Source: Nakamurella sp. A5-74
GTDB lineage: Bacteria; Actinomycetota; Actinomycetes; Mycobacteriales; Nakamurellaceae
Direction: 5' to 3'
Assembly (NCBI RefSeq): GCF_040438885.1
Contig: NZ_CP159218.1
Span: 4,340,001 to 4,404,000, forward strand
DNA: 64,000 bases
Each line of letters starts with the position of its first letter. Position 1 is the stretch's first letter. The notes under the pieces are model-generated. The model was given only the letters and a program-made list of their open reading frames with translations. It was not told the DNA's origin and did no database searches. The position numbers and the translations under genes were made by a program. Of the stretch, positions 6,406-60,910 are shown piece after piece.

Positions 6406-7602
6406 ACGTTTCGAGAGTTCTGGGCCCAGAACGTGTGGGCGCGCGATGCGGCGATCCCCGCCGTGTTGCTCATCCTCGCCCTCGCGACCGCAGCCCAGGG
6501 CGGCGGCACCACCCTGTTCTCGATGCTGTTGATCGCACCGTTGTTCTGGCGGCGGTCGTTCCCGGAGACCGTCACCGTGATCGTCGCCGCCCTGGCGCTG
6601 GTCCAGGTCGCGGTGGGTTACCGATACCAGGTCGGCGACCTCGCGGTCCCGCTGGTCGTGCACGCGGCGACCGCGTACGCGCGCAACCGCCGCTGGGGCT
6701 GGAGCGCGCTGCTGCTGGGGTTGTTGGGCGCCGCCATCTCCTCGGTGGCGTTCTTCGGATTCGACGATCCACGAGGCGCGCTGACCAACGGCGCCATCAC
6801 CGCCACCACCGTTGCCGTCGCCTTCCTGGTGGGTCGACAACAGGAGACCCACGCCCGGGACTCCGCCGCTGCCGTGGCGGAGCGGGACCGGCTGCTGCAG
6901 GAACAGCAGATCCGGCGCAGCGAGATGGCCGCGGCCCAGGAACGCACCCGGATCGCGCGGGAACTGCACGACATCGTGGCGCACTCGCTGTCGGTGGTCG
7001 TCGTCCAGGCCGAGGGCGGGCGCGCTGCGGCCAGGACCAAGCCGGAGCTCGCACCGGAGGTGCTGGCCACCATCGCCGGTACCGCGCGGGCCGCTCTGGG
7101 CGACATGCGGCGACTCGTCGGGGTGTTGCGCACCGGCGGCGAACCGGAATCCAGCCATCCGGACTTCGCGCCGGCGCCCACGCTGGGAGACGTCGCCGAC
7201 CTGGTCGCCCAGGTCAGCGCCGCTGGGCAACGGGTGCAGCTGCAGATCACCGGCGAGGAACGCCCGGTACCGCCGGGTGCCGGTCTGGCCGCGTATCGGC
7301 TGGTCCAGGAGTCGTTGACCAACGTCATCAAACACGCCGGTTCGAGCGCGAGCACCGAGGTCAACGTGCACTACGCACCGGGCGAGGTCCACGTCTCGGT
7401 GTTGGACGACGGCCGGGGTGCGGCCGCGGCCGGTGACGGTCAGGGCAACGGCCTGATCGGGATGCGTGAGCGGGTCACCCTGCAGGGCGGAACCGTTGCC
7501 GCCCACGCCCGCTCCGGCGGCGGCTTCATCGTCACCGCGACGATCCCGACCCCCCAGCAGGGCGCTCTGGCCGCCGCCGATCCCGCCGGGAACCACCGAT
7601 GA
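6403..7602 (+). CDS. Two-component sensor histidine kinase (HisKA_3 type)
   Basis: A 399-residue membrane kinase. The first about 145 residues hold four to five hydrophobic segments. A cytoplasmic coiled region follows, then the HisKA_3 dimerisation/phosphoacceptor motif RIARELHDIVAHSLSVVVVQ, where the first His of HDIVAHS is the likely phosphosite. The ATP-binding domain has an N box (LVQESLTNVIKHA), a DDGRG motif and GNGLIGMRERV. This is the NarX/DesK-like architecture that pairs with LuxR-type regulators. Its stop overlaps the regulator's start by 4 bp (ATGA), so the two are translationally coupled. The signal is unknown. A start at ATG 6367 is possible, but the GTG with its -10 is preferred. 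Confidence 0.92.
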   Translation: MTFREFWAQNVWARDAAIPAVLLILALATAAQGGGTTLFSMLLIAPLFWRRSFPETVTVIVAALALVQVAVGYRYQVGDLAVPLVVHAATAYARNRRWGWSALLLGLLGAAISSVAFFGFDDPRGALTNGAITATTVAVAFLVGRQQETHARDSAAAVAERDRLLQEQQIRRSEMAAAQERTRIARELHDIVAHSLSVVVVQAEGGRAAARTKPELAPEVLATIAGTARAALGDMRRLVGVLRTGGEPESSHPDFAPAPTLGDVADLVAQVSAAGQRVQLQITGEERPVPPGAGLAAYRLVQESLTNVIKHAGSSASTEVNVHYAPGEVHVSVLDDGRGAAAAGDGQGNGLIGMRERVTLQGGTVAAHARSGGGFIVTATIPTPQQGALAAADPAGNHR

Positions 7603-8342
7603 CCCAGGCCGCGCCGCCGATCAAGGTCTTCCTGGTCGACGACCAGATGCTGGTGCGCACCGGCTTCCGGATGCTCGTCGAGGCCCAGGACGACATGGTG
7701 GTGGTCGGGGAGGCTCCGGACGGACGCCAGGCGATCGCCGCGCTGGTTCCGGGTGGGAGCGCAGCCGACGCCGAGGTGGTGCTGATGGACGTCCGGATGC
7801 CGGTGCTCGACGGGGTCAGGGCGACCCAGGAGATCGTCGCCGCCCACGACGCACCCGCCCGCAGCGGACCGGCAGCGGCCGGTCCCGGGGCGGAGGCGCC
7901 CGTGCGCTCCGGCCCGAAGGTGTTGGTGCTGACCACGTTCGACATCGACGAGTACGTGTTCGCTGCGCTGCGAGCCGGCGCGTCCGGATTCCTGCTCAAG
8001 GACGCCCGCCCGGAAGACCTGCTGGGCGCGATCCGCAGCGTGGCCGCGGGCGACTCGGTCGTGGCTCCCAGCGCTACCCGCAGGCTCATCGCCACCGTCG
8101 TCGATCAGTTGCCGGGCCCCGACCGCGCCTCCGCCGCGCGACTGGACGTGCTGACCGCCCGGGAGCGGGAAGTGCTGCAGCTGATCGCGGCCGGAGCGAC
8201 CAACCCGGAGATCGCCATCCAGCTGTACATGGCCGAGGCCACGGTGAAGACACACGTGGGACGGCTGTTGTCCAAGCTGGCGGTTCGGGACCGGGTGGGA
8301 CTGGTGCTGGTGGCCTACGAGACCGGCCTGGTCCGGAGCTGA
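7599..8342 (+). CDS. LuxR/NarL-family response regulator
   Basis: A 247-residue regulator. The receiver domain begins IKVFLVDDQMLVRTGFRML, has the phosphoacceptor Asp in VVLMDVRMPVLDG, and the conserved Lys in FLLKDARPEDL. The C-terminal LuxR-type helix-turn-helix starts LTAREREVLQLIAAGATNPEIA. Between the phospho-Asp strand and the next strand there is an insertion of about 20 Ala/Pro/Gly-rich residues, unusual within a receiver domain. It is expected to be phosphorylated by the overlapping upstream kinase and to bind DNA as a dimer. Target genes are not identifiable here; the convergent sortase is not an obvious one. Confidence 0.95.
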   Translation: MTQAAPPIKVFLVDDQMLVRTGFRMLVEAQDDMVVVGEAPDGRQAIAALVPGGSAADAEVVLMDVRMPVLDGVRATQEIVAAHDAPARSGPAAAGPGAEAPVRSGPKVLVLTTFDIDEYVFAALRAGASGFLLKDARPEDLLGAIRSVAAGDSVVAPSATRRLIATVVDQLPGPDRASAARLDVLTAREREVLQLIAAGATNPEIAIQLYMAEATVKTHVGRLLSKLAVRDRVGLVLVAYETGLVRS

Positions 8343-10235: not shown

Positions 10236-10913
10236 TCAGGAAATGAACGGCTTGGCAGCCGCGAGAACGGTGGCCATGTCGGCCTTCGCCTCGAACGGGG
10301 ACGGGAAGGGCTTGCCGCCGATGAGGCTGGCGATCACCGCAGCGTGACGCGACTCGACGCCCGCGATCGAAGCTGCGGCTGCGAGAACGTCCACGCTCTT
10401 GATGAGCGGAACCTGACCGTGGTACGCGGTCACACCGAGCTCCTCGAACGCCGAAGCGGTCTTCAGGAACGAATCGCGCGAGGCGAAGGTCCCGTCCGGG
10501 TAGGTGATCTTCGGCTTGGAGACCGGGGTGCCACCGAACGCCTTGACGGTGTCGGAGACTGCGCTGACGTGCGTCTTCTCGTGATCCTCGATCGGAGTCA
10601 CCAGCTCGAGTTCGCGACCCGAGAGCAGACCCTTGGCCAGGCCCTGGGAGTAGAAGTCGGCCTCGAGGAACTCGAGGGTGAGGGCGTAGTTGAGGATCTC
10701 AACGTCTCCCTCGGTGCCCGCGGCCGGAGCGGCCCCGCGCATGATGTTCGCCGGTGAAGCACCGGCGACGCCGGCTCCACCGAGCAGACCGCCAGCCACG
10801 AATGTGGCTCCGAAGCCCACCAGTCCTGCCATCTTCAGGAACTTGCGACGGTCGGTGCTGGTGCTGAACTCCAGTACCGGCTTTCCGCCGAAGATCCTCT
10901 CTTCGCCTGCCAT
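10236..10913 (-). CDS. Ferritin-like domain protein with Tat signal
   Basis: A 225-residue paralogue of the downstream gene. It carries a twin-arginine export signal (DRRKFLKMAGLVGFGA) about 20 residues in, followed by a hydrophobic core and an AGASPA-type cleavage region. It also has the ferritin-like helices VEILNYALTLEFLEADFY, EDHEKTHVSAVSDTVKA and GVESRHAAVIASLIGG. Tat export implies folding, and perhaps metal loading, before secretion. It is first in a two-gene operon. The two proteins differ in their tether: one exported through Tat, one with a C-terminal hydrophobic anchor. Confidence 0.87.
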   Translation of the reverse strand: MAGEERIFGGKPVLEFSTSTDRRKFLKMAGLVGFGATFVAGGLLGGAGVAGASPANIMRGAAPAAGTEGDVEILNYALTLEFLEADFYSQGLAKGLLSGRELELVTPIEDHEKTHVSAVSDTVKAFGGTPVSKPKITYPDGTFASRDSFLKTASAFEELGVTAYHGQVPLIKSVDVLAAAASIAGVESRHAAVIASLIGGKPFPSPFEAKADMATVLAAAKPFIS

Positions 10914-11281: not shown

Positions 11282-12388
11282 GTGCTCCCCCACCGGTTGA
11301 CGCTGACCGACGCGCGGCAGGTCGCCGTGCGCGCCCAGCTGCTGGACGCCGACCGCCCCGATCAGATCCTCCGGCTGACCGAGCACCTCACGGCGTTCCA
11401 GCTGGACCCGACGTCGGCCGTAGCCCCCAGCGCCGAACTGGTCGCCTGGAGCCGGCTGGGTGCCTGGATCGCGACCGACACGATCGCTGCGGCTCTCGCG
11501 GACCGCACCCTGTTCGATCTCGACAACTTCGCCCGTCCGGCAACGGACCTCCCGCTGTTCACCGCGGCGATGGCCGGGTGGCCGGGCCCGGAGCCGCTGC
11601 AGGGCTGGCAGCGGGCATCCCGGGACTGGGTGACCGCGAACGACGCCTGCCGCCGCGACGTCCTCGCGGCGCTGGCCACCGGAGGTCCCCAGGTGATCGG
11701 GGAGCTTCCGGACACCTGCGTCGTGCCGTGGCGCTCGTCCGGGTGGAACAACAATCGCAACGTCGGTCGACTGGTCGAGATGATGGCTCGGCGCGGCGAG
11801 GTCGCGGTCGCCGGGCGCCGTGGTCGGGAGAAGCTCTGGGACTTGGCCGGCAACGTCCACCCGGATCTCCCGTCGGTGCCGCTCGAGCAGGCCCAGCACC
11901 GGCTCGCCGAACGGCGACTCACTGCGCTCGGCCTCGCCAGGGCGAAGGCCGTGGAGACTCCGATCGAACCGAACGGCGTCGGAGGAGTCGGTGAGCCTGC
12001 CGTGATCGAGGGAGTGCGAGGCCAGTGGCGCGTCGACCCGACCCAGCTGGACCGACCGTTCATCGGGCGGACCGCACTGCTCTCCCCGCTGGACCGGCTG
12101 GTCTTCGACCGCAAGCGGATGACGGAGATCTTCGCCTTCGACTACCAACTGGAGATGTACAAGCCGGCTGCCCAGCGACGCTGGGGTTACTACGCGCTGC
12201 CCGTCCTGGTCGGTGACCAGCTGGTCGGCAAGGTGGACGCCACCGCGGATCGCGCCGCCGGGGTGCTGCGGGTCGCCGCCCTGCACCGCGACCCGCTGTA
12301 CCCGGACGACGCGGAGGACTCGGTTCGCGCCGAGCTCGACTCGCTGGCCGAATGGCTCGGCCTCGGCCTGGAGCTCCCCGCGGACTGA
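11282..12388 (+). CDS. Winged-helix DNA glycosylase, YcaQ/AlkX family
   Basis: A 368-residue protein matching the helix-turn-helix_42 (YcaQ-like) family of DNA interstrand-crosslink glycosylases. The catalytic-site motif of AlkX/YcaQ enzymes, Q-hydrophobic-D, is present as FQLD near residue 38. The family-typical ALLSPLDRLVFDRKRMTEIF and FDYQLEMYKP..RWGYYALPVL signatures occupy the C-terminal half. Enzymes of this family unhook alkylated bases, including nitrogen-mustard crosslinks. The start is a GTG with TACCGT 6 nt upstream, suggesting a leaderless transcript. It stands alone, followed by short 18-bp direct repeats at about 12386-12430. Confidence 0.87.
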   Translation: MLPHRLTLTDARQVAVRAQLLDADRPDQILRLTEHLTAFQLDPTSAVAPSAELVAWSRLGAWIATDTIAAALADRTLFDLDNFARPATDLPLFTAAMAGWPGPEPLQGWQRASRDWVTANDACRRDVLAALATGGPQVIGELPDTCVVPWRSSGWNNNRNVGRLVEMMARRGEVAVAGRRGREKLWDLAGNVHPDLPSVPLEQAQHRLAERRLTALGLARAKAVETPIEPNGVGGVGEPAVIEGVRGQWRVDPTQLDRPFIGRTALLSPLDRLVFDRKRMTEIFAFDYQLEMYKPAAQRRWGYYALPVLVGDQLVGKVDATADRAAGVLRVAALHRDPLYPDDAEDSVRAELDSLAEWLGLGLELPAD

Positions 12389-12577
12389 GCACTCTCCGCG
12401 CACCGAGCACTCCCAACGCACTGAGCATCAGACCGTGGTCGTACCCGGCGCCCGTCCACTGCCCCCGCGGACGCACTCACCCTCGCCGAGATCCCGTCCC
12501 GTGCTCCGATCCGGCAGGCGGCCCGAATTCCTAGCGTTGTCCGTGTCCACTTCGACGACACGAAACGAGCACATCGC

Positions 12578-55035: not shown

Positions 55036-55226
55036 CTCCCCGATCCTGCCCCACGAGCCCCTCTGCTGTACGGCACGAACTGCCACGGAATGGGCGATTC
55101 TTCGGTCACAGCTGACGTCCGGATCACCATCAGCGCGGCCCGTGGCCGATGGGGTGAGCGCCGGAGGAGAAGGTGACCGTCGCTGGGCGCTCCCGCAGGG
55201 CGTCCACTTCACGACACACTGCTGGG

Positions 55227-55259
55227 ATGGACCAGGACGAGGATCGCATCGATGCCTGA
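55227..55259 (+). CDS. Ten-codon upstream ORF overlapping the next gene
   Basis: ATG at 55227 opens a frame encoding MDQDEDRIDA and stops at 55257-55259, overlapping the start of the 196-aa gene (ATG 55252) by 8 nt. CACACT sits 6 nt before its ATG, matching the leaderless-start pattern seen across the window. It may couple translation into the downstream gene. No family; supported by position only. Confidence 0.35.
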   Translation: MDQDEDRIDA

Positions 55260-55842
55260 CCCCCGCATCCGCTGGGTGGGCCCGACGCACGTCGAGATCG
55301 ACGTCGGGTGGCACGGCGACATCGTGATCGACGAGCACGGCATCAGGCAGCGCGGACGCCACGTCCGATGGGCGGAGCTGCACTCGATCCATCCGGCCGC
55401 CGTCCGCGGCCAGGTGACCCTGATCGTGCGCACCGACCGGCGCCGGGGAAGCAGAGAGCTCGCGCTCGGTCGCGGTGGGCCGGATCCCCACGAGGTGCGG
55501 GCGGCGCTCCTCGCCGTCGCCGATGCCGCCGGCATCGAGTTCCCCGAGGAGCACTGGCTGGAACGGACGCTCGACCTGGCCGGAGGCCTCCGCACCGACA
55601 CCACGGGCGCGGATGCCGTGCGCACCGCGGCCCGGGGCACGGTCTGGTACCTCGACCGTGAACCCGAGATCAGCGACACGGCCTTCGCGCTCAGCGCCCG
55701 GGTGGAGGTCGACCCGGAGGTACCCGCCGCCGAGCGGGCCGACTGGGCGATGGCCCGTGGTGGCGAAAGCGTGGCCGGCCTCACCGCCCTCGGACAACTC
55801 GGACCGATTCGGTGGCGAAGGACGCAGACGATCCGGGACTGA
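55252..55842 (+). CDS. Hypothetical protein with PH-like N-terminal half, retron-linked
   Basis: A 196-residue soluble protein of no recognised family. The first about 100 residues alternate short strands and end in a helix (IRWVGPTHVEIDVGWHGDIVID, RHVRWAELHSIHPAAV, VTLIVRTDRRRGSRELALG, PHEVRAALLAVADAAGIEF), reminiscent of a bacterial PH-like domain. The rest is probably alpha/beta with several Trp. The gene ends at the first base pairs of the structured region preceding the reverse transcriptase and lies on the same strand, so it could be part of the retron unit as accessory protein. That role is inference; it might equally be an unrelated neighbour. Confidence 0.6.
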   Translation: MPDPRIRWVGPTHVEIDVGWHGDIVIDEHGIRQRGRHVRWAELHSIHPAAVRGQVTLIVRTDRRRGSRELALGRGGPDPHEVRAALLAVADAAGIEFPEEHWLERTLDLAGGLRTDTTGADAVRTAARGTVWYLDREPEISDTAFALSARVEVDPEVPAAERADWAMARGGESVAGLTALGQLGPIRWRRTQTIRD

Positions 55843-55843
55843 T

Positions 55844-56161
55844 CCGCCGTGACGGTGTTCGCACGAGTCGAGGATCTTCGGTCACAGATCATGCCCACGC
55901 GGTTCGCGGGGCATCGTTCCGCGGTCATCCCGCCGTGGCATGGTGGGTCGATGCGGCGGTGCGGACGAGAACGTCGGCCGGAGACGGCCCGACCGCTCCG
56001 GGGTACCCCCGGGGTGCGCACAGTGCAGTTGGCACCACCGAGCAGGCACCCCATCTGCGCTCCGCGCAGGACGGTGCCCGCCCAGCAGGGATCGGTCGCC
56101 CAGCACCGCCGCATGCCATTCCCGTCCAGCCGGAGGACACCGCAGCCGGACCTCGCGGCGG
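55844..56161 (+). ncRNA. Candidate retron msr-msd non-coding RNA
   Basis: This stretch between the upstream gene and the reverse transcriptase can fold into a chain of stems: 55891-55914 (atgccc/gggcat plus cgcg/cgcg), 55930-55959 (ccgcc..gcat with atgc..ggcgg, 3-nt bulge), 55973-55993, 55998-56012, 56011-56052 (ggggtgc/gcacccc), 56055-56069 (ctgcgc/gcgcag, 3-nt loop) and 56072-56108 (cggtgc/gcaccg). A 9-bp long-range pairing (55844-55852 with 56153-56161, one G-U) brackets all of them, like retron a1/a2, and ends 4 nt before the reverse transcriptase ATG. No conserved priming AGC was identified. Boundaries are provisional. The reverse transcriptase frame stays open through here, so a coding extension is the rival reading. 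Confidence 0.5.
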
Positions 56162-56165
56162 CCCC

Positions 56166-57494
56166 ATGACCTCGAACAATGCTCAGCGGCTCGCGACCAC
56201 GCTGGCGGACGCCGCACTGGCCGGTGACTGGGACGCTGACCACCTGCGACTGAGCCTGTTCCGCGTGGTGGGGCGACGTCGGGCCTGGCTCAGGGACCTG
56301 GCCGCGGAACTACTCGAGGCCCATCCACGGCCCCCCGCGGACCGCCCCCGCGAGCTGGCCATGTTCATCCTGGCCAGCGCCGCATTCGAGCGCGCCCGAG
56401 TGGCGCCACGACCGCTCCCCGTTCCGAAACTCGTGCTGCCGGCGCCCACCTCGACCGTCCATCGGCCGTTCCGCACCCCCCGCATCGACGATGCGGGCGC
56501 ACTGGCCGACCTGCTGGGCATCACCATCGCGGAACTCGACGCCCACGCCGACACCCGTCTCCGCGCGCGCCGGGCCCGATCGGCCGGGATCGCCCACTAC
56601 CGCTACGAGTGGGTCAAGCGGTCGGCGGGTGCGCGGCTGCTCGAGGTGCCGAAACCACGGATGAGGACCTGCCACCGACAGATCCTCGACGAGGTACTCG
56701 CCCCCATCCCGGTGCATCCCGCCTGCCACGGATTCGTCCTGGGGCGGTCGGCGATCACCGGCGCTCGCGAGCACGTGGGCGCCCAGTTGGTGGTGACCTT
56801 GGATCTGGAGCACTTCTTCGCTTCGGTGACCGCAGCCCGGGTCTGGGGGGTGCTGCGTGCCGCCGGCTACCCGGAACCGGTGGCCCACCTGTTGACCGGA
56901 CTCACCACCCACGCCACCCCGGTGGCCGTTCTCACGACCATGCCTGCCGGGCGGGACCCGTCGCGCGACTTCCGTCTTCGTCGCCGACTGGCCGCGCCCC
57001 ACCTGCCGCAGGGTGCCTCGACCTCCCCTCAATTGGCCAATCTGGTCCTGTTCCCGCTCGACCGCCGGCTCGCTGCACTCGCCGAGTCCGCCGGGGCCAC
57101 CTACACCCGCTACGCCGACGATCTGACGTTCTCCGGAACCCGACATGCACTGCGCGGCAATGCCTCTGGCCTGATCGCCGCCGTCGGCCGGATCGTGCGT
57201 GAGGAGGCGTTCCGGGTGCACCCCGACAAGACCCGCGTTCGACACGCACATGAACGGCAGAGCGTCACCGGGATCGTGGTCAACCAGCGCACCAACGTCG
57301 CCCGCAGTGAGTACGACCAGGTGAAAGCGGTGCTGCACGAGGCACGGCAGCGCGGTCCCGGCGCGGCGAACAGGACCGGACAGCCAGACTTCCGCGCCCA
57401 CCTGCTGGGCCGGATCTCCTGGATCGCCTCCACCAACTCGGACCGCGGAGCGCGCCTCCGCGCGAGCTTCGAAGCCGTCGACTGGTCTGTCTGA
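56166..57494 (+). CDS. Retron-type reverse transcriptase with N-terminal extension
   Basis: A 442-residue reverse transcriptase. The fingers-palm core starts near residue 140: HYRYEWVKRSAGARLLEVPKPRMR, HGFVLGRSAITGAREHVGA (where retron enzymes have NAxxH), VVTLDLEHFFASV (first Asp, D213), LPQGASTSPQLANLVL (280-295) and the catalytic YTRYADDLTFSG (YADD 316-319). The thumb contains SVTGIVVN (367-369), the VTG triplet of retron enzymes. There is no maturase/X or endonuclease domain, so it is not a group II intron protein. About 135 residues precede the core (helical, Arg/Ala-rich), an arrangement I associate with myxobacterial retron enzymes. The upstream DNA is a candidate msr-msd. The biological role, probably anti-phage defence, is inferred. 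Confidence 0.9.
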   Translation: MTSNNAQRLATTLADAALAGDWDADHLRLSLFRVVGRRRAWLRDLAAELLEAHPRPPADRPRELAMFILASAAFERARVAPRPLPVPKLVLPAPTSTVHRPFRTPRIDDAGALADLLGITIAELDAHADTRLRARRARSAGIAHYRYEWVKRSAGARLLEVPKPRMRTCHRQILDEVLAPIPVHPACHGFVLGRSAITGAREHVGAQLVVTLDLEHFFASVTAARVWGVLRAAGYPEPVAHLLTGLTTHATPVAVLTTMPAGRDPSRDFRLRRRLAAPHLPQGASTSPQLANLVLFPLDRRLAALAESAGATYTRYADDLTFSGTRHALRGNASGLIAAVGRIVREEAFRVHPDKTRVRHAHERQSVTGIVVNQRTNVARSEYDQVKAVLHEARQRGPGAANRTGQPDFRAHLLGRISWIASTNSDRGARLRASFEAVDWSV

Positions 57495-60764: not shown

Positions 60765-60864
60765 GGTCATGAGTTCCGACGCGCAGCCCTGGCTGGTCGG
60801 ACGGCAACCCTCACGGATGTGGCGGGGTGCCCCAGGTGAGGACCCGGCACGAGCCCCTCGTGCA
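60765..60864 (+). ncRNA. SAM-binding riboswitch, SAM-IV (SAM-I/IV clan) type
   Basis: The sequence from ggtcatgag (60765) to gaggacc (ending 60844) matches the actinobacterial SAM aptamer pattern. P1 is ggtc (60765-60768) with gacc (60841-60844). Conserved blocks are ctggctggtcgg, acggcaaccctc and gcggggtgcccc. A perfect 7-bp hairpin gcacgag/ctcgtgc follows at 60847-60863, as expected for the extra 3' stem of SAM-IV. It lies 47 nt before the start of an O-acetylhomoserine sulfhydrylase gene, so high SAM would lower methionine synthesis, probably by occluding ribosome access. Confidence 0.87.
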
Positions 60865-60910
60865 AGCACACCCGTCCGCTGCGATGCGGCTCGTCAGGAA
60901 GACCGTTGAC

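What the first reader, a model, noticed from the sequence alone, without database searches (positions are those of the whole stretch)
55227..57494. Retron-like locus in a high-GC actinomycete: RT, structured upstream RNA candidate and linked unknown gene
The RT has LPQGASTSP, YADD and a VTG triplet, no maturase domain, and about 135 extra N-terminal residues. It is preceded by about 320 bp of highly self-complementary DNA and, before that, by a same-strand gene of unknown family whose stop abuts that region. This is the layout of a retron (accessory protein, msr-msd, RT). Experimentally studied retrons are mostly from proteobacteria and myxobacteria, so a GC-rich actinomycete version would be informative. 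Visible: motifs and layout. Known: retron family features. Inferred: that msDNA is made and that the locus has a defence role.
Basis: partly seen in the sequence, partly recalled or inferred. Interest (0 to 1): 0.88.

Follow-up and report, generated by a model that had tools for sequence, protein, structure and literature searches.

The report
Effector-less retron with conserved ncRNA
An actinobacterium carries a two-part retron, a reverse transcriptase plus the structured RNA it should copy into DNA; the RNA is shared from actinobacteria to Burkholderia and planctomycetes, and no partner 'effector' gene travels with it, so its role is an open question.

Summary
The RT (56166-57494, 442 aa) belongs to a retron clade already recognised as PADLOC RT_outgroup/RT_other. 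It groups with retron and myxobacterial RTs, away from group II, DGR and DRT2 RTs.

The "self-complementary DNA" is a discrete 168-nt ncRNA at 55951-56118. A covariance model finds it upstream of the RT in 107 of 110 family loci, and only once in the window's own genome. In the 31-sequence seed, 26 of 41 pairs show compensatory changes. The RNA has the retron hallmark: a terminal a1/a2 helix whose inner end abuts an invariant G (55969). Rfam has no match.

The upstream 196-aa gene has no homologue in 100 related genomes and none beside any other RT. No gene is conserved within 6 kb of 101 loci. The conserved unit is ncRNA + RT only.

Best reading: a solo, two-component retron that makes a short msDNA by 2'-5' priming from G55969. 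Branch formation, msDNA and a defence role are inferred; neighbours are mostly housekeeping genes. The RT clade is known; the pan-phylum ncRNA model and the systematic absence of an effector are what is informative.

The parts
55939..55944 (+). putative -10 hexamer (CATGGT) of the ncRNA promoter
   Evidence: Hexamers of the form nAnnnT lie 12 nt before the a1 start in 40 of 96 loci (32 of them TAnnnT), against 0-7 at offsets further upstream.
55951..56118 (+). msr-msd-like ncRNA, 168 nt
   Evidence: R1 covariance-model hit, 116.7 bits, all 171 positions; only hit in the genome.
55951..55962 (+). a1 arm of the terminal helix
   Evidence: 12 nt, 100% complementary to 56103-56114; 11 of 11 pairs covary in A2.
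55966..55968 (+). inner part of the a1 strand (CGA), pairs with 56096-56098 (UCG)
   Evidence: Helix 2 of the model.
55969..55969 (+). candidate 2'-5' priming (branch) guanosine, directly 3' of the a1/a2 helix
   Evidence: G in 92 of 92 sequences with a letter there; same position as the priming G of known retrons (PMC6868368).
55973..55993 (+). msr hairpin 1 (variable sequence, covarying)
   Evidence: Helix 3 of the A1 structure, 7 of 7 pairs with changes on both sides.
55997..56013 (+). msr hairpin 2, nearly invariant (consensus UCCGGGG, 3 nt, CCCCGGG)
   Evidence: The GGGG/CCCC core is unchanged in all sequences with letters (96 of 96 at three pairs, 94 of 94 at the fourth).
56042..56081 (+). 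msd hairpin (template for the predicted cDNA; nested stem ending in the CUGCG/CGCAG hairpin)
   Evidence: Helices 5 and 6 of A1, 8 of 11 pairs covary.
56096..56114 (+). a2 strand (UCG and GCACCGCCGCAU); cDNA predicted to start opposite about 56095
   Evidence: Paired to a1; start point inferred from known retrons.
56166..57494 (+). retron reverse transcriptase, 442 aa
   Evidence: RVT_1 5e-19; PADLOC RT_other 556 bits and RT_outgroup 523 bits; AlphaFold2 pLDDT 96, best PDB matches all retron RTs.
56166..56450 (+). coding region of the N-terminal five-helix domain (about residues 1-95)
   Evidence: Confident model (pLDDT 88.6) with no significant PDB match.

Best explanation
This is a two-component (solo) retron of the RT_outgroup clade, sister to myxobacterial retrons. 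A promoter at about 55939 starts a transcript at a1. The 168-nt RNA folds into a closed a1/a2 helix, two msr hairpins and one msd hairpin (shown by covariation). The RT made from the gene 47 nt downstream binds the msr (inferred from known retrons) and primes from the 2'-OH of G55969, the base directly after a1. It copies the RNA from about 56095 back through the msd hairpin into a short cDNA of very roughly 55-70 nt, leaving an RNA-linked msDNA (inferred). No effector gene is encoded with it, so the msDNA-RT particle either acts through the RT's own N-terminal helical domain or with a host protein encoded elsewhere (inferred, weak). Phage sensing is the default guess for its role, not a result.
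For: RT class: PADLOC RT_other/RT_outgroup 556/523 bits, against 52 for the group II maturase model and 32 for Drt2. PDB sequence search: Ec86 2e-26, Ec67 3e-22, Ec78 3e-19, group II 1e-3 for a full RT, DRT2 0.23. Structure: the top 14 VIA rows are all retron RTs, Z 21-28. Tree: a starred branch (SH-aLRT 97) holds retron, myxobacterial and family rows apart from group II, DGR and DRT2. Catalytic D213, D318 and D319 are invariant in 77 sequences. ncRNA: 95.5% of pair cells standard in the seed, against 34-48% when slid; 26 of 41 pairs with changes on both sides. In 96 sequences from several phyla, 890 double-changed cells against 235 shuffled. Found in 107 of 110 loci. Present in 30 of 101 relatives, 29 of which have the RT; the 30th hit lies at a contig end. 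Priming G in 92 of 92. dN/dS of the RT 0.13-0.28 in 16 pairs. No linked gene.
Against: No msDNA or 2'-5' branch can be shown by computation. Two retron-specific RT motifs are diverged: NAxxH is xAxxH (GAREH here), and VTG is kept in only 28 of 77 relatives, though the window has it. Known defence retrons carry an effector and none is found here. Neighbours are mostly housekeeping genes. The N-terminal domain is missing in some family members (for example L022, L080, L101), so it cannot be a universal effector. One family locus (L100) has no recognisable ncRNA.
Confidence: 0.82

Rival explanations
1. Three-part retron: the 196-aa protein (55252-55842) is the effector or accessory protein of this retron.
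For: Same strand, stop 108 nt before a1. Codon-position GC typical of a real gene (0.78/0.55/0.88). In three congeners the FAD-subunit/permease junction is only 59-308 bp, so the gene sits in the same variable interval as the retron.
Against: No homologue in 100 relatives, 30 of which carry the RT strongly, nor in the flanks of 100 loci. A separate promoter-like -10 lies between it and the ncRNA. No family match in Pfam, NCBIfam or PADLOC.
Confidence: 0.06
2. A DRT/Abi-like antiviral RT with an ncRNA template but without 2'-5' branching (protein-primed or repeat-making cDNA).
For: DRT systems also pair an RT with a neighbouring conserved RNA and can work without a separate effector gene (PMC12039810, PMC12483538, abstracts). 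Retron motif NAxxH is degenerate here.
Against: Sequence, fold and tree place it with retron RTs. The RNA has the a1/a2 helix ending at an invariant G, a retron feature.
Confidence: 0.08
3. A retron used for something other than phage defence (housekeeping or regulatory msDNA), kept mainly by vertical descent within genera.
For: Neighbours are housekeeping genes and few are defence genes. Shared neighbours within Dactylosporangium and within part of Nocardioides. In IMG/VR contigs only distant relatives, at most 41% best-segment identity. Purifying selection.
Against: Patchy presence: 31 of 101 relatives at E below 1e-40, and 11 of 17 genomes of the genus. Different chromosomal places and empty sites within the genus look like a gained and lost module.
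Confidence: 0.3
4. Group II intron-derived or DGR RT with chance upstream hairpins.
For: RVT_1 hit only in Pfam.
Against: Group II equivalog score 52 against a cut-off of 300; tree; covariation.
Confidence: 0.01

Closest known systems
Retron 'outgroup' RTs (PADLOC-DB RT_outgroup PDLC03740 and RT_other PDLC02949)
   Same: RT matches both profiles almost end to end, N-terminal domain included (residues 3-441 and 7-440).
   Different: Nothing at RT level. The profiles carry no RNA; the ncRNA here has no Rfam match. Whether the clade's RNA is described in papers not held could not be checked.
Myxobacterial retrons (Mx162, Mx65, Sa163, Ne144)
   Same: RT with an N-terminal extension (PMC6868368); Mx65 also lacks the N of NAxxH and uses a GAGC priming context; Myxococcota RTs are the nearest outside group in the tree. 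That they lack an accessory gene is from memory, not tested.
   Different: Most Myxococcota homologues do not match the R1 RNA model (4 of 25 loci do). Where read, their N-termini and upstream regions look different. None of the sampled loci could be named as Mx162.
Retron-Eco1 (Ec86)
   Same: Best solved structure, Z 28.2 over 303 residues, 28% identity. Its a1/a2 helix ends at the priming G (general retron rule).
   Different: Ec86 works with a separate effector (7v9x is a complex with it) and has no N-terminal five-helix domain.
Retron type XIII (PADLOC RT_XIII)
   Same: Next best PADLOC type, 304 bits over residues 104-438.
   Different: About 220-250 bits below the outgroup profiles; no alignment of the N-terminal 100 residues.

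Membership tests
Retron | RT falls in the retron RT clade, not group II, DGR or DRT | tested here: met
   Profiles, PDB search, fold comparison and tree.
Retron | Structured msr-msd RNA encoded next to the RT on the same strand | tested here: met
   R1 hit at 55951-56118; 107 of 110 loci; covariation.
Retron | Terminal a1/a2 helix ending at or just before a conserved priming G | tested here: met
   12-bp perfect a1/a2 plus inner helix; G in 92 of 92. Rule from PMC6868368.
Retron | NAxxH motif in region X of the RT | tested here: inconclusive
   GAREH in the window, xAxxH in the family; H invariant, A in 66 of 77. Two validated retrons also lack the N.
Retron | VTG triplet at the start of region Y | tested here: met
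   VTG at residues 367-369 in the window; VTG 28, LAG 21, other 28 of 77 in the family.
Retron | Makes msDNA with a 2'-5' RNA-DNA branch | not testable with these tools
   Needs isolation of small nucleic acid.
Tripartite defence retron (types I-XIII) | Effector protein or fused effector domain encoded with RT and ncRNA | tested here: not met
   No conserved neighbour within 6 kb of 101 loci; the 196-aa gene is an orphan. The N-terminal domain has no significant match to a solved fold, so a fused effector of a new kind is not excluded.
Tripartite defence retron (types I-XIII) | Anti-phage activity | not testable with these tools
   No phenotype data.
PADLOC RT_outgroup / RT_other | Full-length match to the clade's RT profile | tested here: met
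   523 and 556 bits; similar scores for four further members, three of them from other phyla.
Group II intron / DGR / DRT | RT clusters with that class | tested here: not met
   One DGR, two group II and two DRT2 rows were used, a small sample.

The most novel reading that the evidence does not exclude
A widespread class of effector-free retrons, with one RNA architecture kept across at least five phyla, whose msDNA-RT particle does its job through the RT's own N-terminal helical domain or without any toxin; that is, a retron that is not a toxin-antitoxin-type abortive-infection system.
Probability: 0.3. Interest if true: 0.85.

Novelty: new variant of a known kind. Interest (0 to 1): 0.6.

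Why it matters
Retrons are described as three-part immune systems whose toxin is held back by msDNA. Here is a large branch in which only the RT and its RNA are conserved, with strong purifying selection and compensatory base changes, so the pair must do something on its own or with a host factor. The covariance model makes the msr, msd, priming G and start site predictable across the family, mostly in GC-rich actinobacteria, where few if any retrons have been studied. It gives direct mutants to test, and a compact ncRNA-RT pair that may be useful for making DNA in actinobacteria.

Tried and rejected
Upstream 196-aa gene as accessory: rejected.

A conserved neighbour as effector: 1174 called genes in 101 loci were clustered. 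Apart from the RT, the largest cluster (19 loci) lies at scattered distances and on both strands. A PADLOC scan of 104 nearest neighbours found isolated hits only (mad3, mad8, JetD, PDC-S02).

Rfam for the ncRNA: nothing at gathering score or up to E 1.

N-terminal domain by fold: no Foldseek match below E 1.9; best VIA Z 5.8, which is common for helical bundles.

Phage or plasmid carriage: only distant retron RTs in phage and viral records. A few family members sit on large replicons or plasmids (Burkholderia, Tsukamurella, Dietzia).

A mobile-element boundary: no terminal repeats framing the ncRNA-RT pair stood out. A 22-nt imperfect repeat (82%) frames the 196-aa gene instead; not followed up.

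Coding explanation of 55812-56165: the RT frame is open upstream in the window, but it lacks the codon-position GC pattern of the RT (0.80/0.69/0.67 against 0.74/0.55/0.84) and the RNA pairs covary.

Literature: Mestre et al. 2020 and the retron census papers are not held, so prior description of this ncRNA could not be excluded.

Full report
OBSERVATION. The RT ORF with LPQGASTSP, YADD and VTG is at 56166-57494 (+), 442 aa. Pfam finds only RVT_1 (5e-19). It is the only RVT_1 match in the 4.75-Mb genome. A same-strand 196-aa ORF at 55252-55842 stops 108 nt before the structured region; it matches no family.

RT CLASS. PADLOC gives RT_other 556 bits and RT_outgroup (labelled retron) 523 bits, then type XIII 304. 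The group II maturase model scores 52 (cut-off 300), Drt2 32. In the PDB, Ec86 2e-26, Ec67 3e-22 and Ec78 3e-19 lead; group II RTs come in at 3e-4 to 1e-3. An AlphaFold2 model (77 family sequences, pLDDT 96.2) has retron RTs as its 14 best VIA matches, Z 21-28 (Ec86 28.2 over 303 residues); group II and DGR RTs follow at about 20. A 67-row tree puts retron RTs, Myxococcota RTs and this family on one side of a starred branch (97), apart from group II, DGR and DRT2; it is a quick tree with few outgroup rows. Within it, Myxococcota RTs are the nearest neighbours. D213 and YADD D318/D319 are invariant.

THE RNA. Aligning upstream DNA of family members showed a shared element. In 31 sequences its structure has 41 pairs: 95.5% of cells are standard pairs, against 34-48% when slid by 1-3 columns, and 26 pairs have changes on both sides, 0 of 500 shuffles as high. 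A model built from these (R1) finds the window RNA at 55951-56118, 116.7 bits, once in the whole genome, and upstream of the RT in 107 of 110 loci. Of the other three, L090 has it at 30.5 bits with filters off, the genome of L008 has it 3.9 kb upstream with genes in between, and L100 lacks it. In 96 sequences, including Planctomycetes, Acidobacteria, Burkholderia and Myxococcota, 35 of 41 pairs have double changes; that alignment is fitted to the model and leans towards it. Among 101 relatives the RNA is in 30 genomes. All but one carry the RT; the exception lies at a contig end.

RETRON ANATOMY. In known retrons the 5' and 3' ends of the RNA pair, and the 5' strand contains or ends immediately before the guanosine that primes reverse transcription, in TAGC, CAGA, CAGC or GAGC contexts (PMC6868368). 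Here 55951-55962 pairs perfectly with 56103-56114, CGA 55966-55968 pairs with UCG 56096-56098, and the next base, G55969, is G in 92 of 92 sequences with a letter there, mostly in GAG or AAG context. An msr hairpin with an invariant GGGG/CCCC core and an msd hairpin follow. A TAnnnT -10 box peaks 12-13 nt before a1 (46 of 96 loci at these two offsets, background 0-1 further upstream), so transcription should begin at a1. In the window it reads CATGGT.

NO PARTNER GENE. The 196-aa protein has no homologue in 100 relatives nor near any other RT locus. Clustering of genes within 6 kb of 101 loci gave no linked family. The nearest neighbours are a mixture such as PEPCK, pyruvate kinase and peptidyl-tRNA hydrolase, with isolated defence hits. 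In three congeners the genes that flank the locus here (an FAD-binding oxidoreductase subunit and an NCS2-type permease, named from sequence) are 59-308 bp apart with no RT between, while other congeners carry the RT elsewhere. Whether this is gain here or loss there is not settled; in G015 the RT lies about 7 kb from the same FAD gene. Near pairs of RTs show dN/dS 0.13-0.28.

N-TERMINAL DOMAIN. Residues 1-95 form a five-helix domain (pLDDT 88.6 alone) with no significant structural match. Some family members lack it, so it is not needed for the RNA-RT pairing.

MECHANISM. Shown: RT class, RNA structure, coupling, absence of a conserved neighbour. Inferred from retron biochemistry: msr binding, 2'-5' priming at G55969, cDNA from about 56095 through the msd. 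Weakly inferred: action through the N-terminal domain or a host factor, and any phage role.

NOVELTY. The RT clade is already catalogued, so this is not a new kind. The conserved RNA is absent from Rfam, but the key 2020 classification paper and later census papers were not readable here, so it may have been described.

Noticed in passing
window 60765-60874 (+): SAM-IV riboswitch, 79.5 bits against a gathering score of 38.
   Followed up: no
window 55099-55120 and 55875-55896: 22-nt imperfect direct repeat (TCTTCGGTCACAG core identical) framing the orphan 196-aa gene; could be paired promoters or an insertion scar.
   Followed up: no
L117 (G010), RNA at 12231-12403 (-), RT at 7001-8317 (-): Retron split by about 3.9 kb of inserted genes (among them an ABC transporter) between ncRNA and RT, with a second, weaker ncRNA hit at 10562-10715.
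   Followed up: partly
L021, L022, L079, L101 (Pseudonocardiaceae): Family RTs without most or all of the N-terminal helical domain, with the ncRNA very close to or overlapping the RT start.
   Followed up: partly
L181, L182, L183 (G003, G011, G013): Empty sites: the FAD-subunit and NCS2-permease genes that flank the retron here are adjacent, 308, 261 and 59 bp apart.
   Followed up: partly
L138, L139, L140, L143 (Myxococcota): Sister RTs with a different N-terminus and a different, longer hairpin-rich upstream region shared among them, resembling classical myxobacterial msr-msd.
   Followed up: no
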